Positions 1 to 5,560 of a DNA stretch of 50,436 nucleotides are shown piece by piece (positions within the stretch are counted from its first letter, which is position 1; every line of letters begins with the position of its first letter). The notes below the pieces were generated by a model that did not search any database, was not told the origin of the DNA, and was given only the letters and a program-made list of their open reading frames with translations. The position numbers and the translations under genes are program-made. Source of the DNA: an uncultured Clostridia bacterium (lineage in GTDB: Bacteria; Bacillota; Clostridia; Oscillospirales; Ruminococcaceae); the NCBI GenBank assembly GCA_944386445.1, contig CALXBD010000078.1, positions 1-50,436 of the forward strand, read 5' to 3'.

Positions 1-548
1 AGCAAATCGTCTGGCGATGCATCAACCGGCTGGAATGCGGGCCAAAGGTTTGCAAGGACTCCCCCAGCCTCAAGGAAGATGAACTCTATTCCGCTATTCT
101 GAAAGCCATTCGTTCCCTGGTTCAAGGCCACCAGGAAGAAATGGCTGCCACCCTGCAGGAAGCACTTGCACACTGTATTGGTGGAGAAAACGCCGCAATC
201 AATCCCCTTGTGATAGAAAACAGGCTCCATGACCTGGACAAGGACTTGGACCGGCTGCTAACGATGGATGGGAGTGAAATCGTGGATCTGCGGATCAAGC
301 AAATCAGCGACGAAATGCTCCAGCTGAGGCAAATGAAAAAACGTGTGGAACTGGACGCCCAGCAGGATATGGGCCGAGAAAATAAAGTCAAGGAGATCAT
401 GGAACTCATCTCCACAGAAGATCTCGACCTTACGGAGTATTCCGACACCCTGGTGTACCGGGTGATTGAACGAGTAACCGTACTCTCCAAAGAAGAAATC
501 CGCATCCGCTTCGTCGGTGGGTTTGAACTCACCCAGCCCCTTCACTAA
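1..548 (+). CDS. Large serine site-specific recombinase, C-terminal part (5' truncated by window edge)
   Basis: Open from the window edge in frame 3, stop TAA at 546-548. The visible ~180 residues begin with QIVWRCINRLECG, followed by KVCKDSPSLKEDELYSAI. This is the typical zinc-ribbon end (Cys pairs) and the 'SPxxKEDEL' stretch of large serine recombinases found on Clostridial conjugative and Tn4451-type elements. A long helical, probably coiled-coil segment follows (LVIENRLHDLDKDLDRLL onward), as in that family, and then a short beta-rich tail ending in GGFELTQPLH. The catalytic serine domain lies outside the window, so activity cannot be judged. The gene marks the left side of the window as the end of an integrated element. 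A strong terminator follows directly. Confidence 0.85.
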   Translation, partial: QIVWRCINRLECGPKVCKDSPSLKEDELYSAILKAIRSLVQGHQEEMAATLQEALAHCIGGENAAINPLVIENRLHDLDKDLDRLLTMDGSEIVDLRIKQISDEMLQLRQMKKRVELDAQQDMGRENKVKEIMELISTEDLDLTEYSDTLVYRVIERVTVLSKEEIRIRFVGGFELTQPLH

Positions 549-551
549 GAA

Positions 552-613
552 GCAGGCACAGAGAAATGCTGGCAGCTTGAGGGCTGCCGGTGTCTCTCTG
601 TGCCTGCTTTTCT
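552..613 (+). terminator. Intrinsic terminator after the recombinase
   Basis: A perfect 13-bp outer stem (gcaggcacagaga at 552-564 with tctctgtgcctgc at 595-607) encloses a second small stem (ggcagc/gctgcc), followed by ttttctcg. It starts 4 nt after the recombinase stop codon. Confidence 0.85.
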
Positions 614-615
614 CG

Positions 616-644
616 TTGAGAAATAGGGAAATTTGTGGTATAAT
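616..644 (+). promoter_or_regulatory. Sigma-A type promoter for the reverse transcriptase
   Basis: TTGAGA at 616-621 and TATAAT at 639-644 are separated by 17 bp. Transcription would begin near 651, giving a leader of about 140 nt before the reverse transcriptase ATG. The promoter lies just after the terminator, so the reverse transcriptase is an independent unit. Confidence 0.8.
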
Positions 645-650
645 AACTTT

Positions 651-790
651 GCCAGATAAATAATTTAGGCACTTGCTAAAACTTGCATTCTATTTCGAAT
701 GATTTATCCAACATGAAAGATAACAGTAGATGTCTTGAGATTTATAGGGTAGGAAAGTCATATTCATGCTGTTAAGAGGGGTGGATCAGC
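651..790 (+). ncRNA. Structured leader / candidate non-coding RNA upstream of the reverse transcriptase
   Basis: Seen in sequence: gataaat (655-661) pairs with atttatc (702-708), directly adjoining an inner hairpin cattc/gaatg (686-690/697-701). Further down, catgaa (712-717) can pair with ttcatg (763-768), and taacag (721-726) with ctgtta (769-774). These last two helices cross and so could form an H-type pseudoknot or alternate with each other. A direct repeat acttgc lies at 671-676 and 681-686. The ribosome site agaggggtgg (about 774-783) follows immediately. That this RNA serves the reverse transcriptase (as template or partner) is inference; it could also control translation only. Confidence 0.45.
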
Positions 791-2863
791 ATGTTTTCAA
801 TAAAAGACGTTGCTAAGCAGAGCAACCTGATCCTTGCATATAATCGTTTGTTAACTAATCCAGAAAGTACTTATAAAAATTTTTTTAGAGACTCTTATTC
901 AGCATATGGAATAGCAATTGAAAAAAATATTACGTTGCTACGTTCCAAAATGAAATCAGGCTATCTACCAACTAATACAATCCGTGTATTTATGCCTAAG
1001 GCGAATGGCTTAAGCCGAATGTATACCCTGATGTCAATTGAGGATCAAATTGTATACCAAGCATATGCTAATGTTTTGGCAGAAGGGTTAGTAGCAATTC
1101 CTCAAGTGAGAAAACGGTATAAGAAAAGCGTTTTCGGAAATCTATATTCCAATTCGGTTAGTCAATTCTTTTATCAAAAATGGCAAGATTCCTATAAAGC
1201 CTATACCAAAGCTATTATCAAAGCCTATGAAAGCGGAAAGAAATATATTGCCTCATTTGACCTTACTGCCTGCTATGACAGCATAAATCATCACTTGTTA
1301 CGGACTGTACTGACGGATAAGTGCCGTTTTAGTGACAATTGCGCTAATATGTTTATTCAATTATTGGCACAATGGGAGTCATCATGCAGTCTGGAACTTG
1401 CTACAGGAATACCTCAAGGGCCACAAGCATCTGGAATAGTTGCAGAAGCCATTTTAGCAGAATATGATTCATATATTGAAAAAATACAAAAAGAAACATC
1501 TTTTTTATATTTTAGATATGTAGACGATATCCGAATTTTGGCTGACAATGAGGAAACTGTTCGTTGGGTATTGTTTCTTTTGGATAAAAGAAGTAAAGAA
1601 CTTGGTCTATTTCCACAATCGTCTAAAATTGCAATTCATAAGATTTCAAATATCAATGATGAGATTAAACGGATTAGTAAGCCTTTGTTTGAAGATGAGT
1701 TTGATAAGGAGAAAAAGTCAATAGTAGCGATAAATTCTATAAAAACGCTAATGAAAGAAGAACCCGCCGATCTCACGACAATTAAACGCTATTTCCAGTA
1801 TGTTGAACAAAGTGCAAAGTCAAATAAACTGGCTATTGAAGCAGTTCGAAAATTTCCAAATATGATTCATTCATTTGCGTTTTATGTGCAAAGATATCCC
1901 AGGAAAATACCTCCAACAATTAGTGACTACATTTATGAATGTTGCCAAGATAAAACTCAGCAGTTTTCTTCAGGAATCTTATTAGAAGCGATAATCGGCA
2001 ATTTAAATAGCAAGGATATAAGTAGGTTTACTGAATTAGCAAAACAAATGCTAAACTCGGATAAAAAGAGAGCCTTTATTGTAGATAGCAGGTACCGTTC
2101 ACAGTTAATAGCATTAGTTCTTTTATACGATTCTAAATTTGGTGTAAGACAGAAAAATTATCTTAAAAAGAGTGATTGGTGGGTCAGAAGCAAGTTGATT
2201 TATCAGGCACAGAAAAATGGGTCTATAAATAAACTTGGTGCGCCTTTCCTCGAAGAATACATTAAATCTCCAGAGTGTGAGTTATCTATAGCTGGTGCGA
2301 ACTGCTACCTTTTAGCACCGCTTCCTAATGAATTACCTCCAGTCAATACAGTTGCTCCATATGCGCAGAACATATTCAAACAGGCTGGAGTGATACAACG
2401 CAGCAGATATTCAAATAGTCAAATCGCACGGTACCTAAAGGAATTGGTTGGTATCCAGCAAACTTTTTCATGGAAAAAGAAGTTGGGTAAAGAGCATGAC
2501 CAAATTGAACGAACTCTATTTATTGCTATGGGATATTGGAAAACAGATCTTACGGCATTTGTGAATCTTTGGGATACAATGGACGATAGAATTTGTAGTC
2601 TGATTACCAAGGATCATATAGAGCTTGGTGGCTATACGCTTGGTAAGATAGGAGCGATAAATAGAAGTAAGGGCTTCATCGGCAATATTCCAAAATTCCA
2701 CAAGATGTGCATGGAATTGCATCGCCTAAGACTCCATTCACATTTATCACACTCTGAAATTAGGGATACTCATCAGTATACTGGCCCAATCCCGCAAAGC
2801 AAGAGAAAAGCAATTCTGAAACTCATAGATGAAGGAATTAGAGAACTAATTCAGTTTTGGTGA
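791..2863 (+). CDS. Reverse transcriptase of non-intron type (Abi/UG-like, putative phage-defence RT)
   Basis: A 690-aa RNA-directed DNA polymerase. Fingers/palm features are in order: a PKANGLSRMYTLMSIEDQIV stretch (about 69-88), motif A FDLTACYDS (156-164), motif B GIPQGPQAS (206-214) and catalytic motif C RYVDD (242-246, YVDD box). About 380 residues with no recognisable maturase, endonuclease or integrase domain follow, and look mainly helical. Group II intron RTs carry maturase X/En domains and retron RTs are about 300-400 aa, so length and layout fit the AbiA/AbiK/'unknown group' (DRT) class better. The subtype cannot be assigned by eye. ATG at 791 is chosen for its site agaggggtgg. The gene is clearly more AT-rich than the chromosome around it, which suggests transfer. 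It stands alone behind its own promoter and structured leader. Confidence 0.85.
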   Translation: MFSIKDVAKQSNLILAYNRLLTNPESTYKNFFRDSYSAYGIAIEKNITLLRSKMKSGYLPTNTIRVFMPKANGLSRMYTLMSIEDQIVYQAYANVLAEGLVAIPQVRKRYKKSVFGNLYSNSVSQFFYQKWQDSYKAYTKAIIKAYESGKKYIASFDLTACYDSINHHLLRTVLTDKCRFSDNCANMFIQLLAQWESSCSLELATGIPQGPQASGIVAEAILAEYDSYIEKIQKETSFLYFRYVDDIRILADNEETVRWVLFLLDKRSKELGLFPQSSKIAIHKISNINDEIKRISKPLFEDEFDKEKKSIVAINSIKTLMKEEPADLTTIKRYFQYVEQSAKSNKLAIEAVRKFPNMIHSFAFYVQRYPRKIPPTISDYIYECCQDKTQQFSSGILLEAIIGNLNSKDISRFTELAKQMLNSDKKRAFIVDSRYRSQLIALVLLYDSKFGVRQKNYLKKSDWWVRSKLIYQAQKNGSINKLGAPFLEEYIKSPECELSIAGANCYLLAPLPNELPPVNTVAPYAQNIFKQAGVIQRSRYSNSQIARYLKELVGIQQTFSWKKKLGKEHDQIERTLFIAMGYWKTDLTAFVNLWDTMDDRICSLITKDHIELGGYTLGKIGAINRSKGFIGNIPKFHKMCMELHRLRLHSHLSHSEIRDTHQYTGPIPQSKRKAILKLIDEGIRELIQFW

Positions 2864-2910
2864 TAATTAAAAATAGACTCGATCAGAACTCAATGTTTTT
2901 ATTTTTAGCT

Positions 2911-3096
2911 GGGTATCTTTTTTGTCAACATAGCCCACGTCGGAGCAAAGTCCGCTTTGCTCCGACGTCTTTTTATGCCTACGGCAAAAAAGGCGTCATA
3001 CGCCCGCTCCCTTGCTCCTCCTTGCCAAACCGCAACCGCTGGCGCTGGGTTGCGGTTTGGGTTCCTAAATGCGCACGGGTATCTTTTTTGTCAACA
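2911..3096 (+). repeat. 20-bp direct repeats bracketing a block of perfect hairpins
   Basis: The 20-mer gggtatcttttttgtcaaca occurs at 2911-2930 and again exactly at 3077-3096. In both copies the ends can form a short stem (gggt with gccc or accc). Between them are a 14-bp stem at 2937-2968 followed by a T-run, and a 13-bp stem at 3025-3060 (ccaaaccgcaacc/ggttgcggtttgg). No convincing gene lies here: an ORF at 2857-3138 is composed of this repeat DNA and has no ribosome site. The first stem can serve as the terminator of the reverse transcriptase gene. Confidence 0.7.
2937..2975 (+). terminator. Intrinsic terminator downstream of the reverse transcriptase
   Basis: acgtcggagcaaag (2937-2950), a 4-nt loop and cttt...gacgt (2955-2968) form a perfect 14-bp stem followed by ctttttat. 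Confidence 0.75.
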
Positions 3097-3108
3097 CAAC
3101 CCAAAAAG

Positions 3109-3160
3109 CACTATTGGGGGATGAACGCTTTAGTTTAGATACCAATAGTGTTTTTTTATT
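3109..3160. terminator. Second terminator-like stem-loop
   Basis: cactattgg and ccaatagtg form a 9-bp stem around a 23-nt loop, with an A-run before and a T-run after, so it could work in both directions. It separates the reverse transcriptase block from the GNAT gene. Confidence 0.6.
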
Positions 3161-3170
3161 TAAAAACGCT

Positions 3171-3213
3171 ACATGACTGTTGAAAGGGTGGTACATGACT
3201 GTTGAAAGGGTGG
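3171..3213 (+). repeat. 22-bp tandem duplication carrying the GNAT ribosome site
   Basis: The unit acatgactgttgaaagggtgg occurs at 3171-3191 and again at 3193-3213, spaced as an exact 22-bp tandem. The second copy supplies the gaaagggtgg that sits 8-10 nt before the GTG start at 3221; the first is a spare copy. Confidence 0.85.
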
Positions 3214-3220
3214 GAGTTTT

Positions 3221-3661
3221 GTGAGTGAAGATATAAAAATTGAACAAGAGAATGTTTCTGCAGAGAAATATATCGATTTCTTAAAGCGGACGAATTTAGG
3301 ATCACAATATCCAAAAGAACGATTCAAAGAAAGAATATCTAAACTCGTAAAAAATGTCTCAATAAGTCTTGTTGCAAGAAATGAACGCGGTTTAATAGTT
3401 GGCGTTTTATTTGGATTAACAGATTATGCTTATTGGCTCTATGTAACGGACTTAGGTGTTGACCGAAATTATGAGAGACAGGGTATCGGGAAACGGCTTA
3501 TGAAAGAAGCGCATAATAGAGCGGGTGGTGAAAAAGACATCGCCGTATATCTGATAGCCAATGAAAATGCGATTCCTTTTTATGAGAAACTTGGCATGAA
3601 AAAAGCAGATGACGTCATGCAATATAACCATATTGAATGGACGGAGTTTACGGTAGAATAA
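3221..3661 (+). CDS. GNAT-family N-acetyltransferase
   Basis: 146 aa. Motif A of GNAT proteins is clear: LGVDRNYERQGIGKRLM (about residues 80-96, with the acetyl-CoA pyrophosphate loop RQGIGK). It is followed by the ANENAIPFYEKLGMKK segment (motif B, residues about 111-126), usual in this fold. The substrate cannot be told. The start is GTG at 3221, downstream of gaaagggtgg in a tandemly duplicated 22-bp unit. It is more AT-rich than the hyd genes that follow and belongs with the accessory segment at the left of the window. A bidirectional terminator lies 60 bp downstream, between this gene and the convergent hydrogenase-maturation operon. Confidence 0.85.
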   Translation: MSEDIKIEQENVSAEKYIDFLKRTNLGSQYPKERFKERISKLVKNVSISLVARNERGLIVGVLFGLTDYAYWLYVTDLGVDRNYERQGIGKRLMKEAHNRAGGEKDIAVYLIANENAIPFYEKLGMKKADDVMQYNHIEWTEFTVE

Positions 3662-3722
3662 AGTAGATGATTCAAGTTTGGCAGCAAAAGGAGCATGGCA
3701 TCTATATTGCAGCGCACATAAT

Positions 3723-3776
3723 AAAAACGCCATTGAGGTCTAACCTGTTAGGAAGCAGATCTCAATGGCGTTTCGT
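3723..3776. terminator. Bidirectional terminator between GNAT and the hyd operon
   Basis: aacgccattgag / ctcaatggcgtt form a perfect 12-bp stem with A/T runs on both sides, placed between two convergent genes. Confidence 0.85.
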
Positions 3777-3816
3777 TTTTGAGCAGGCAAGCACAAGATC
3801 TTACCTATAAAAGATT

Positions 3817-4062
3817 CTAAAAGCTGGAATAGGCGGCTTTTACGGTTACCCCTTTCAGGCGGCCGATTTTTCCGGTCAGGGCGCTGATAACATCATTAGG
3901 CGCATCCATGGCGATGCTGATGACCGCGATGTTTTTTTCCTTATAGGGGATTCCCATGCGCCCGATAATGTAAGCGCTGTACTGATGCAGCAGGTCATTC
4001 AAAGACGCTACCGACGCCGGCTCTTCCACGATAATAGCGGCAACAGCCACCCGAGTTTCCAT
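3817..4062 (-). CDS. TM1266-family [FeFe]-hydrogenase system regulator (ACT-like)
   Basis: 81 aa. METRVAVAAIIVEEP at the N-terminus and GRLKGVTVKAAYSSF at the C-terminus match the small ferredoxin-fold (ACT/NikR-like) proteins known as the TM1266 family. In anaerobes these are usually encoded next to hydEFG and are described as putative iron-only hydrogenase regulators. The ATG has a purine-rich site (ggagaggagc) upstream. It is the last gene of the hydE-hydG operon, 43 bp after hydG. No DNA-binding helix is visible, so a direct regulatory mechanism is not shown by the sequence. Confidence 0.85.
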   Translation of the reverse strand: METRVAVAAIIVEEPASVASLNDLLHQYSAYIIGRMGIPYKEKNIAVISIAMDAPNDVISALTGKIGRLKGVTVKAAYSSF

Positions 4063-4105
4063 AGCAGTTTGCTCCTCTCCGTTGGGTATCTACATTTACG
4101 CTGCC

Positions 4106-5560
4106 TTAAAAGCGGAAATCGCGGATTCCCTGTTCGATCTTTTCCAGGTGATCCTTACAGATTTCCCGTACCTTTTCTTTAGGAATATTCTGCAGCTCTG
4201 CCTGAATGAGTGCTTCGCCGACGGCTTTGGTTTCTTCGCTGGCGTAATCCATCAGGTATTCCTTAAGGGTCATCAAGGCGTTGGGGTGGCAGCAGTTTTG
4301 AATCTGTCCGGACTTGCACAGGGACATAAACCGATCCCCAGTACGGCCTTCCCGGTAACAGGCAGTGCAGAAAGACGGAATATATCCCATTTCCATCAGC
4401 CAGCGCACGACCTCGTCCAGGGAGCGCTGGTCCGAGACATCGAATTGTTCCGTATCGGTGGGGCGTTCCTCGTCTGCATAGCCGCCTACCGAAGTGCGGG
4501 AACCACCACTGACCTGGGAAACACCTAGGCGGAGCACCTTTTCACGGACCGCCTGGCTTTCCCGGGTGGAGATAATCATACCTGTGTACGGTACTGCAAT
4601 CCGGATCAGAGCGCAAATTTTGGCAAAGGTATCGTCGGTAATGCCATTGTCAAAGGCGTTGGGGTCGATGTCATCGGCGTGTTTCACGCGAGGAACACTG
4701 ATTGTGTGCGGCCCAACACCGTGGACCGCCTCCAGGTGTTCGGCGTGCATCAGCAGCCCTGCAAATTCATACCGGTACAGCTCAAGGCCAAACAGTACCC
4801 CCAGTCCGACATCGTCGATCCCGCCCTCCATGGCGCGGTCCATGGCCTCGGTGTGATAGTTATAATCGTGCTTCGGTCCAGTTGGGTGAAGCTTTAAGTA
4901 ACTCTCCTTATGATAAGTCTCCTGGAACAGGATGTAGGTACCGATCCCGGCTTCTTTGAGCTTGCGGTAGTTTTCCACTGTGGTGGCAGCAATATTAACG
5001 TTGACACGGCGGATTGCGCCATTTTTATGCTTGATGGAATAGATGGTGTGGATACAATCCAAGATGTACTCGATGGGGTTCATCACCGGATCCTCGCCGG
5101 ATTCGATAGCCAGCCGTTTGTGGCCCATATCCTGGAGTGCGATTACTTCCCGGGCAACCTCCTCCTGAGCCAGTTTTTTCCGGGGGATGTGCTTGTTTTT
5201 CTGGTGATAGGGACAGTAGACGCAGCCGTTGACGCAGTAGTTTGAGAGGTACAGCGGCGCAAAAATCACGATACGGTTGCCGTAAAAGGCCTTTTTGATC
5301 TCCTCGGCAAGAGCGTACATCTTCTCGATTTTTTCCGGAATATCGCAGGCCAGCAGCACAGAAGCCTCCCGGTGAGTCAATCCGGAGCAAAAGGTGCCCT
5401 GATCGGTGACGCGGGGGCGTGCTTTTTCCAGAATCTCGTCGATCAGCGCCACGTTATTTTTGTTTTCGTCGGCATAGCGCAGAGTTTCCAAAATCTCTTC
5501 ATGATTGATAAATTCATCGGCGCACAGAGATTTCGGGTCATACGAATAGTTGGTTGACAT
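4106..5560 (-). CDS. hydG: [FeFe]-hydrogenase H-cluster maturase HydG (radical SAM tyrosine lyase)
   Basis: 484 aa, full length. HydG cleaves tyrosine by radical SAM chemistry to p-cresol, CO and cyanide for the diiron subcluster of the hydrogenase H-cluster. Two cluster motifs are visible: the radical-SAM CxxxCxxC (C109, C113, C116 in YCVNGCVYCPY) and the C-terminal CxxCx22C (in FCTACYREG... ending NCC) that holds HydG's auxiliary cluster. ATG at 5560 follows agagaggac. It lies 66 bp downstream of hydE and 43 bp upstream of the TM1266-family gene, so the three form one unit. hydF and the hydrogenase itself are not in the window. Confidence 0.95.
   Translation of the reverse strand: MSTNYSYDPKSLCADEFINHEEILETLRYADENKNNVALIDEILEKARPRVTDQGTFCSGLTHREASVLLACDIPEKIEKMYALAEEIKKAFYGNRIVIFAPLYLSNYCVNGCVYCPYHQKNKHIPRKKLAQEEVAREVIALQDMGHKRLAIESGEDPVMNPIEYILDCIHTIYSIKHKNGAIRRVNVNIAATTVENYRKLKEAGIGTYILFQETYHKESYLKLHPTGPKHDYNYHTEAMDRAMEGGIDDVGLGVLFGLELYRYEFAGLLMHAEHLEAVHGVGPHTISVPRVKHADDIDPNAFDNGITDDTFAKICALIRIAVPYTGMIISTRESQAVREKVLRLGVSQVSGGSRTSVGGYADEERPTDTEQFDVSDQRSLDEVVRWLMEMGYIPSFCTACYREGRTGDRFMSLCKSGQIQNCCHPNALMTLKEYLMDYASEETKAVGEALIQAELQNIPKEKVREICKDHLEKIEQGIRDFRF

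What the first reader, a model, noticed from the sequence alone, without database searches (positions are those of the whole stretch)
616..2863. Stand-alone reverse transcriptase with a structured, pseudoknot-capable leader RNA
An AT-rich 690-aa YVDD reverse transcriptase without maturase or retron features sits behind its own promoter, next to a recombinase end. The ~140-nt leader holds a coaxial hairpin (655-661/702-708 with 686-690/697-701), two crossing 6-bp helices (712-717/763-768 and 721-726/769-774) and a repeated acttgc (671-676, 681-686). Known defence RTs (DRT2-like) use an adjacent structured ncRNA as template, so this pair could be an uncharacterised DRT-type system. The ncRNA role is inference.
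Basis: partly seen in the sequence, partly recalled or inferred. Interest (0 to 1): 0.78.

Follow-up and report, generated by a model that had tools for sequence, protein, structure and literature searches.

The report
Stand-alone defence-type reverse transcriptase (UG19)

Summary
The ORF 791-2863 (690 aa, YVDD) is real and matches the UG19 profile of UG/Abi (DRT) reverse transcriptases end to end (PADLOC E 6e-146). It falls below the group II and retron cut-offs. A positive control works: three Drt2 pairs keep 84-95% identity over the same 140 nt. In two relatives the RT ORF starts 3-4 nt after hsdS. No Pfam HEPN model matches it and fold scores are weak. Best reading: a protein-only, AbiA/AbiK-like defence RT making protein-primed DNA without an RNA template, with HEPN as dimeriser or RNase. 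New member of a known kind; the mechanism is inferred.

The parts
3..548 (+). C-terminal 181 aa of a recombinase (cut by the contig end; probably the large serine type, inferred); neighbour, may mark a mobile element
   Evidence: tblastn to 192 plasmid records, 7 of 8 listed rows named recombinase family protein, 31-32% identity; Pfam Zn_ribbon_recom E 0.0063, below cut-off
550..609 (.). 27-nt-arm palindrome (-49.8 kcal/mol), probably the recombinase's terminator, before the RT promoter
   Evidence: function inferred
616..644 (+). promoter-like site TTGAGA-17-TATAAT with TG before the second hexamer
   Evidence: 11 of 12 consensus (5 sites in the region against 8.6 in shuffles)
651..790 (+). 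leader claimed as ncRNA: no excess folding, no conservation beyond the last ~45 nt; includes Shine-Dalgarno-like AAGAGGGG at 774-781
791..2863 (+). UG19 reverse transcriptase, 690 aa
   Evidence: PADLOC RT_UG19 E 5.9e-146 over residues 4-690; dN/dS 0.062 against L011
791..1675 (+). RT fingers/palm domain, residues 1-295
   Evidence: Pfam RVT_1 E 2e-14; AlphaFold model
1517..1528 (+). catalytic YVDD, residues 243-246
   Evidence: Y243 and D246 18 of 18, V244 and D245 17 of 18
1706..2386 (+). alpha-helical repeat region, residues 306-532
   Evidence: AlphaFold pLDDT 85.3, pTM 0.84; Foldseek rows include UG15/DRT4, AbiK, Abi-P2, AbiA, DRT6
2423..2860 (+). C-terminal helical HEPN-like domain, residues 545-690
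   Evidence: modelled from residue 541 on its own: pLDDT 93.4, pTM 0.87; weak Foldseek hits, 7 of 27 rows are HEPN proteins, including ranks 1 and 2
2720..2752 (+). H644..R647-x6-H654 motif (HEPN R-x(4-6)-H)
   Evidence: H644, R647 and H654 invariant in 18 of 18

Best explanation
The gene encodes a self-sufficient UG19 reverse transcriptase of the UG/Abi defence kind with three parts: RT domain, helical repeats, C-terminal HEPN-like domain. It lies beside a recombinase gene, probably on a mobile element. By analogy with AbiA and AbiK it most likely makes protein-primed DNA without an RNA template, and this activity interferes with phage growth. The HEPN-like domain dimerises the protein or, if its R-x6-H is catalytic, cleaves RNA once triggered. 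The leader is an ordinary promoter-plus-ribosome-site region. Shown here: family membership, predicted three-part fold, invariant motif, purifying selection, lack of leader conservation, defence or mobile-element neighbours in several relatives. Inferred: untemplated synthesis, phage defence, the role of HEPN.
For: UG19 HMM end to end; 18 of 18 aligned members match UG19, best E 5.5e-184. Full model pLDDT 85.3 with helical repeats after the palm; Foldseek rows led by UG15/DRT4 and including AbiK, DRT6, Abi-P2 and AbiA. D595, H644, R647, H654 invariant; R-x6-H at the end of the third long helix and the invariant Asp in the second, as PMC3710099 describes for HEPN (passages). AbiA from a Lactococcus plasmid aligns HKIRNSNPVSHS opposite HRLRLHSHLSHS. 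dN/dS 0.057-0.073 overall and 0.055-0.095 in the HEPN part over four close pairs. No leader signal, with a positive control: -140 leaders at shuffle level (window-L011 65.6 vs 62.5; window-L014 57.9 vs 62.7; L013-L017 64.2 vs 63.2; L016-L019 61.7 vs 61.8), Drt2 83.8-94.6 vs about 61-62. RT ORF 3 and 4 nt after hsdS in L022 and L021. Type I R-M genes beside 4 relatives (L013, L020, L021, L022), Abi_C gene beside L026, peptidase and integrase beside L028, relaxase after L011.
Against: No activity was measured. The HEPN assignment has no significant sequence or fold score: no Pfam HEPN hit in 18 members, Foldseek E 1.2 or worse, hhalign to one AbiA HEPN sequence 0.3% probability though it lands on the motif. 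The residue after R is L, Y or F in 17 of 18, where HEPNs with the motif typically carry N, D or H. AbiA's own HEPN showed no RNase activity in vitro (PMC11077055 section 19). Whole-chain Foldseek TM-scores are low (0.27-0.45 by query length) and its list also holds group II, retron, DGR and DRT9 enzymes; the RT half scores UG17, Drt3a and group II models as well as or better than AbiK or Abi-P2, so placement in Class 1 rests on the helical repeats. The last 45 nt of the leader are 70.7% identical to L011 against a shuffle mean of 59.2 (maximum 77.4), and in L011/L012 a strong hairpin ends just before the Shine-Dalgarno, roughly where the window has a weaker stem; I did not show that this is chance.
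Confidence: 0.62

Rival explanations
1. DRT2/DRT9/DRT10-like system: the leader (651-790) is a structured RNA that the RT copies.
For: The named helices exist; the RT domain scores UG17 (DRT10 by PMC12632851, passages) and Drt3a models at 3e-18 and 1e-17; PMC12489045 states that DRT2 has a 280-nt upstream ncRNA (passages).
Against: Fold z 0.17; leader at shuffle-level identity while Drt2 controls are conserved; no room in L021/L022; Class 2 RTs are described as single-domain, this one is modelled with more.
Confidence: 0.05
2. Untemplated RT activity is a regulator and the C-terminal HEPN domain is the killer: phage infection releases an RNase that stops the infected cell.
For: H..R-x(4-6)-H invariant in 18 of 18, domain under purifying selection; HEPN RNases recur in defence and abortive infection (PMC3710099, passages).
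Against: Non-polar or aromatic residue after R in 17 of 18; the AbiA HEPN was inactive on tested RNAs and judged structural (PMC11077055 section 19).
Confidence: 0.2
3. A conserved RNA partner exists but not in the leader (inside the ORF, far away, or in trans).
For: Not excluded: only 600 nt on each side were compared.
Against: No downstream conservation in 27 of 29 pairs; relatives sit in varied contexts in six phyla.
Confidence: 0.08
4. Group II intron or retron remnant.
For: group_II_RT_mat model hit at 75 bits; conversely the UG19 profile also hits RTs that look like group II enzymes at E 1e-42 to 1e-44.
Against: Its cut-off is 300 bits; retron models score 27-42 bits against cut-offs of 235 to 600; no intron or retron RNA among Rfam matches of 1-4200 at E 5; UG19 scores 485.8 bits.
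Confidence: 0.02

Closest known systems
UG19 group of UG/Abi reverse transcriptases (PADLOC PDLC03756)
   Same: Full-length HMM match; 17 relatives align end to end and match the same profile
   Different: Nothing important; the HEPN-like domain carries no annotation in the libraries searched (Pfam, PADLOC, NCBIfam)
AbiA (Lactococcus, PDB 8oz7)
   Same: RT, helical domain, C-terminal HEPN with R-x6-H followed by a serine; restriction-modification neighbourhood
   Different: RT domain very distant (hhalign probability 8%; AbiA profiles not among the best 25 of 81 listed for the window); no HEPN_AbiA_CTD match; 690 aa against 628 for L044
AbiK, Abi-P2, DRT4 (UG15), DRT6
   Same: RT fused to helical repeats; among the leading Foldseek rows
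   Different: PMC11077055 section 19 calls a C-terminal HEPN distinctive of AbiA among Abi polymerases; none is mentioned for these in what I read
DRT2 (UG2) with upstream ncRNA
   Same: UG/Abi defence RT, single protein gene
   Different: The three Drt2 control pairs keep a 319-335-nt upstream block at 85-89% identity, UG19 pairs keep none
UG21 (one member seen, L005)
   Same: Next best HMM for the window (E 2.3e-41)
   Different: L005 is 626 aa and shows no H..R..H motif in the alignment

Membership tests
UG19 (UG/Abi RT) | full-length match to the UG19 profile, better than every other RT profile | tested here: met
   485.8 bits against 140.1 for the next. 18 of 18 aligned members match UG19, but that call shows the ranking for the window only
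UG19 (UG/Abi RT) | anti-phage activity | not testable with these tools
   only neighbours: type I R-M, peptidase/integrase, Abi_C, relaxase
Class 1 UG/Abi RT | RT fused to HEAT-like helical repeats | tested here: met
   by prediction only: AlphaFold and Foldseek; class definition from PMC12489045 (passages); UG19's own class in the original classification not seen (paper not held)
Class 1 UG/Abi RT | template-independent, protein-primed synthesis | not testable with these tools
   inference only
DRT2-like, ncRNA-templated | conserved cis-encoded RNA next to the RT | tested here: not met
   26 of 29 pairs without any upstream match, three explained otherwise; Drt2 control 3 of 3 positive
AbiA | RT + helical + HEPN architecture | tested here: met
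   by prediction and motif; see HEPN rows for its limits
AbiA | sequence match to HEPN_AbiA_CTD (PF18732) | tested here: not met
   not among the 5 families matched by 18 members at E 10; no match in G000 at E 1e-5
HEPN superfamily | R-x(4-6)-H at end of helix 3, acidic residue in helix 2 | tested here: met
   R107 in helix 94-108 and H114 in the loop after it, D55 in helix 47-68 of the domain model
HEPN superfamily | polar residue (mostly N, D or H) right after the R | tested here: not met
   L 10, Y 6, F 1, and one gap (L027, which has R-x4-H with N) of 18; 'typically' in PMC3710099, so not absolute
HEPN superfamily | significant fold match | tested here: inconclusive
   best rows LsoA and Csx1-Crn2 but E 1.2 and 2.2
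HEPN superfamily | RNase activity | not testable with these tools
   none
Group II intron RT | maturase model above cut-off and intron RNA | tested here: not met
   75 of 300 bits; no Rfam intron in 1-4200 at E 5
Retron | retron RT model above cut-off, msr/msd | tested here: not met
   best 42.2 of 235 bits; none among Rfam matches of 1-4200

The most novel reading that the evidence does not exclude
UG19 is a second RT lineage, only distantly related to AbiA in its RT domain, that fuses a DNA-making reverse transcriptase to a HEPN RNase in one chain, so that the DNA it attaches to itself holds or releases the RNase: a one-protein toxin with a built-in nucleic-acid latch.
Probability: 0.15. Interest if true: 0.72.

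Novelty: new member of a known kind. Interest (0 to 1): 0.4.

Why it matters
UG19 stands in profile libraries as a candidate defence RT, but the open-access text I could search names it in one RT paper, once, in a table. An invariant HEPN-type motif behind helical repeats, and no conserved leader RNA, make a concrete prediction (protein-only, AbiA-like) that can be tested in laboratory E. coli. The leader comparison with a Drt2 positive control is also a cheap way to separate RNA-templated from RNA-free defence RTs.

Tried and rejected
Leader as ncRNA: tested by folding, shuffles, pairwise leader comparison, a Drt2 control and operon spacing, and rejected. Covariation with RNA models was not attempted because the leaders do not align beyond chance. 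Downstream RNA: no match in 27 of 29 pairs.

First control attempts failed: two single-protein Drt2 scans of viral contigs found nothing; the alignment scan gave 18 loci. Nine of these 18 were used with three of the earlier Drt2 loci (12 in all); L052 (match begins at its first base), L055-L062 (short matches), L032 and L033 were left out. Only three pairs, all among L047-L049, had at least 400 aligned coding bases. Limits of the control: one of the three pairs (L048-L049) is closer (82% coding) than the UG19 pairs; all three also match downstream, so they may share some context; the upstream block was not matched to an ncRNA model, only to the place and rough length (280 nt) given in PMC12489045; L049 has a 104-codon stop-free run in its 340 nt, L047 and L048 only 66 and 67.

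Tree of RT domains: the 19 UG19 rows lie on one side of a branch with weak support (68/57). AbiA falls next to them (fork 88/80), which would favour a single origin of the HEPN fusion and so speaks against 'second lineage'; but its branch is 5.45 long, UG25, UG21 and one Drt2 row are long too, and few outgroups were used, so nothing is built on it.

A leader-like match in an unnamed relative (L064) lies in front of a guaA-like gene and is taken as chance (gene name recalled from the sequence). PDB profile search of the C-terminal domain found nothing meaningful. Flanking DNA in relatives was not taken further, so the mobile-element boundary is unproven. VIA-align was unavailable.
Full report
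Observation. The ORF 791-2863 encodes 690 aa with YVDD. They are not more than chance: 651-790 folds at -25.0 kcal/mol against a shuffle mean of -25.55 (z 0.17), and crossing 6-bp helices occur in 36% of 1000 shuffles, a 7-bp helix in 46% of 500 and a repeated 6-mer in 92% of 500. The recombinase end upstream is real.

Family. PADLOC's RT_UG19 profile covers residues 4-690 at E 5.9e-146; the next family, UG21, covers residues 9-295 in its best stretch at 2.3e-41. Group II maturase (75 of 300 bits) and retron models (42.2 of 235 at best) fall below their cut-offs, and Rfam shows no intron or retron RNA in 1-4200 at E 5.

Relatives. A search of 394 genomes of the order at E 1e-20 found only the window's own. 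A search of 398 of the phylum with the UG19 profile gave 7 genomes at E 1e-40 including the own. Judged by E-value, matched length and ORF size, two of the other six are UG19 (L002, L003); L005 is UG21 and L008 UG25 by PADLOC, and the last two genomes hold RTs of about 420 aa that look like group II enzymes (L006 scanned, G508 not). A scan of 84,980 species genomes with two short peptide patterns gave 17 loci, and viral contigs gave two. Patterns of this kind miss members, so the number is a floor. Named hosts, most of them metagenome assemblies, span Bacillota, Bacteroidota, Pseudomonadota, Verrucomicrobiota, Actinomycetota and Campylobacterota. Closest are L011 and L012 (82% aa identity), L013 and L017 (64%) and L014 (60%).

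Leader test. In 29 homologue pairs with at least 600 aligned coding bases, 26 show no blastn match at E 1e-3 in 600 nt upstream (596 for L016, 258 for L012) and 27 none downstream. The three upstream matches are L011/L012 (99% identical elements), L021/L022 (the match lies inside hsdS, by the coordinates) and L028/L029 (syntenic prophages). In L028/L029 the 90-nt gap before the RT is 68% identical while the RT is 82%. Synonymous sites are saturated (dS about 1.7 for window-L011, L013-L017 and L016-L019), so an unconstrained leader should be lost and a functional one kept. As a positive control, Drt2 loci from viral contigs with 71.6, 72.2 and 82.1% coding identity keep a 319-335-nt block, ending 0-16 nt before the RT ORF start, at 85-89% (3 of 3 pairs), and 84-95% over the last 140 nt. 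Drt2 dS was too high to compute for two of these pairs and 1.44 for the third. In the same 140 nt four UG19 pairs give 58-66%, against shuffle means of 62-63%. The last 45 nt of the window's leader are 70.7% identical to L011 (shuffle mean 59.2, maximum 77.4), which I read as the ribosome site; 651-745 are 60.9% (shuffle mean 62.8). In L021 and L022 the RT ORF starts 4 and 3 nt after hsdS. One loose end: in L011/L012 a strong hairpin ends just before the Shine-Dalgarno, roughly where the window has a weaker one. Of 18 leaders folded only L023 has z below -2, and its hairpin looks like the terminator of the gene upstream (L018 was too short to test). Limits of the control are given under Tried and rejected.

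Protein. AlphaFold2 with 18 rows gives pLDDT 85.3 and pTM 0.84: RT 1-295, helices 306-532, C-terminal domain 545-690. Foldseek's leading rows are UG15/DRT4, G2L4, a group II RT, AbiK, DRT6, retron Eco2, Abi-P2, AbiA and DRT9, with TM-scores by query length of 0.27-0.45 among the 50 listed. The C-terminal domain, folded from residue 541 on, gave pLDDT 93.4. D595, H644, R647 and H654 are invariant in 18 of 18. R647 ends the third long helix and H654 lies in the loop after it, with the invariant Asp in the second long helix. This is the layout PMC3710099 describes for HEPN domains (passages). Foldseek's two best rows, and 7 of 27 in all, are HEPN proteins (LsoA, Csx1-Crn2 three times, AF0298, an archaeal HEPN homologue, MntA-HepT), but no E-value is below 1, I did not see which part of each is aligned, and no Pfam HEPN family matches. 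Placing LsoA (RNase LS family) and Csx1 in HEPN follows PMC3710099; HepT as HEPN is recalled. AbiA from a Lactococcus plasmid, which matches PADLOC AbiA at 8.5e-189, aligns motif to motif, and its motif RNSNPVSH is the one printed in PMC11077055 (section 19). That paper reports the AbiA HEPN as dimerising and without detectable RNase activity on the RNAs tried. In UG19 the residue after R is L, Y or F in 17 of 18, which is unusual for HEPNs with this motif. dN/dS is 0.055-0.095 in this domain over four pairs, so it is under selection; a fifth pair, window-L014, is 0.115 overall and not computable for the domain. L013 carries YVND, so one member may be inactive.

Context. From the ORFs of 17 relatives I picked 20 neighbouring proteins of 11 loci by eye and scanned them. 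Type I R-M genes adjoin L013, L020, L021 and L022. L026 adjoins an Abi_C gene and L022 a Schlafen AlbA_2 gene; a RhuM/Fic gene lies one gene before L027. L028 has the RT between a peptidase gene and an integrase, and L029 has the same ORFs around it. L011 is followed by a relaxase gene, and L012 by an ORF beginning with the same residues. L017 precedes an actin-like gene and follows an AAA gene. L023 follows a ribonucleotide reductase gene, an ordinary chromosomal neighbour, and L014's scanned neighbours (two weak matches) do not look like defence. Several of these fit a mobile defence gene; no enrichment test was run.

Mechanism. PMC12489045 (passages) says that most UG/Abi systems lack ncRNA and that Class 1 members carry HEAT-like repeats. 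PMC13174585 (abstract and passages) says that Class 1 enzymes studied so far synthesise DNA without a nucleic-acid template. UG19 has predicted repeats and no conserved leader, so the RNA-free mode is the better bet. The HEPN role is open between dimeriser and RNase.

Literature limits. 'UG19' as a whole word since 2014 is in 11 held papers, one about RTs, where it appears once, in a table. The original UG/Abi classification is not held, so whether it already notes the HEPN domain is unknown to me. Six papers were seen as passages only or passages with abstract (PMC8934634, PMC12632851, PMC13174585, PMC3710099, PMC12489045) or as abstract, section 19 and part 1 of section 21 (PMC11077055); the rest only in search listings.

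Noticed in passing
window 2911-2937 and 3077-3103: Two 27-nt direct repeats (93% identical; the 20-nt core GGGTATCTTTTTTGTCAACA is exact in both, none expected by chance) flank a stretch that begins with the hairpin 2937-2968; window 2935-3031 is 81% identical to a Pusillibacter faecalis plasmid.
   Followed up: partly
window 3170-3213: Perfect 22-nt tandem duplication TACATGACTGTTGAAAGGGTGG just before the GNAT acetyltransferase ORF at 3221-3661, doubling its likely ribosome site.
   Followed up: no
L047, L048, L049 (viral contigs), upstream of Drt2: A 319-335-nt block before Drt2 is better conserved (85-89%) than the gene (72-82%), and further matching stretches at 75-76% lie downstream; good material for a Drt2 ncRNA model.
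   Followed up: partly
L013 RT, residue aligned to window D245: YVND instead of YVDD: first catalytic Asp lost in an otherwise intact 701-aa member.
   Followed up: no
L011/L012, last 65 nt or so before the RT: Strong hairpin CAGCTTGGACAA...TTGTTCAAGCTG ending just before the Shine-Dalgarno; the window has a weaker stem in a similar place.
   Followed up: partly
L026 8091-8930: Abi_C (PF14355) protein directly downstream of a UG19 RT in a Fermentimonas MAG.
   Followed up: no
L005 15-1493 and 1486-3366: A UG21 RT overlaps the end of a 492-aa upstream ORF, suggesting a translationally coupled partner.
   Followed up: no
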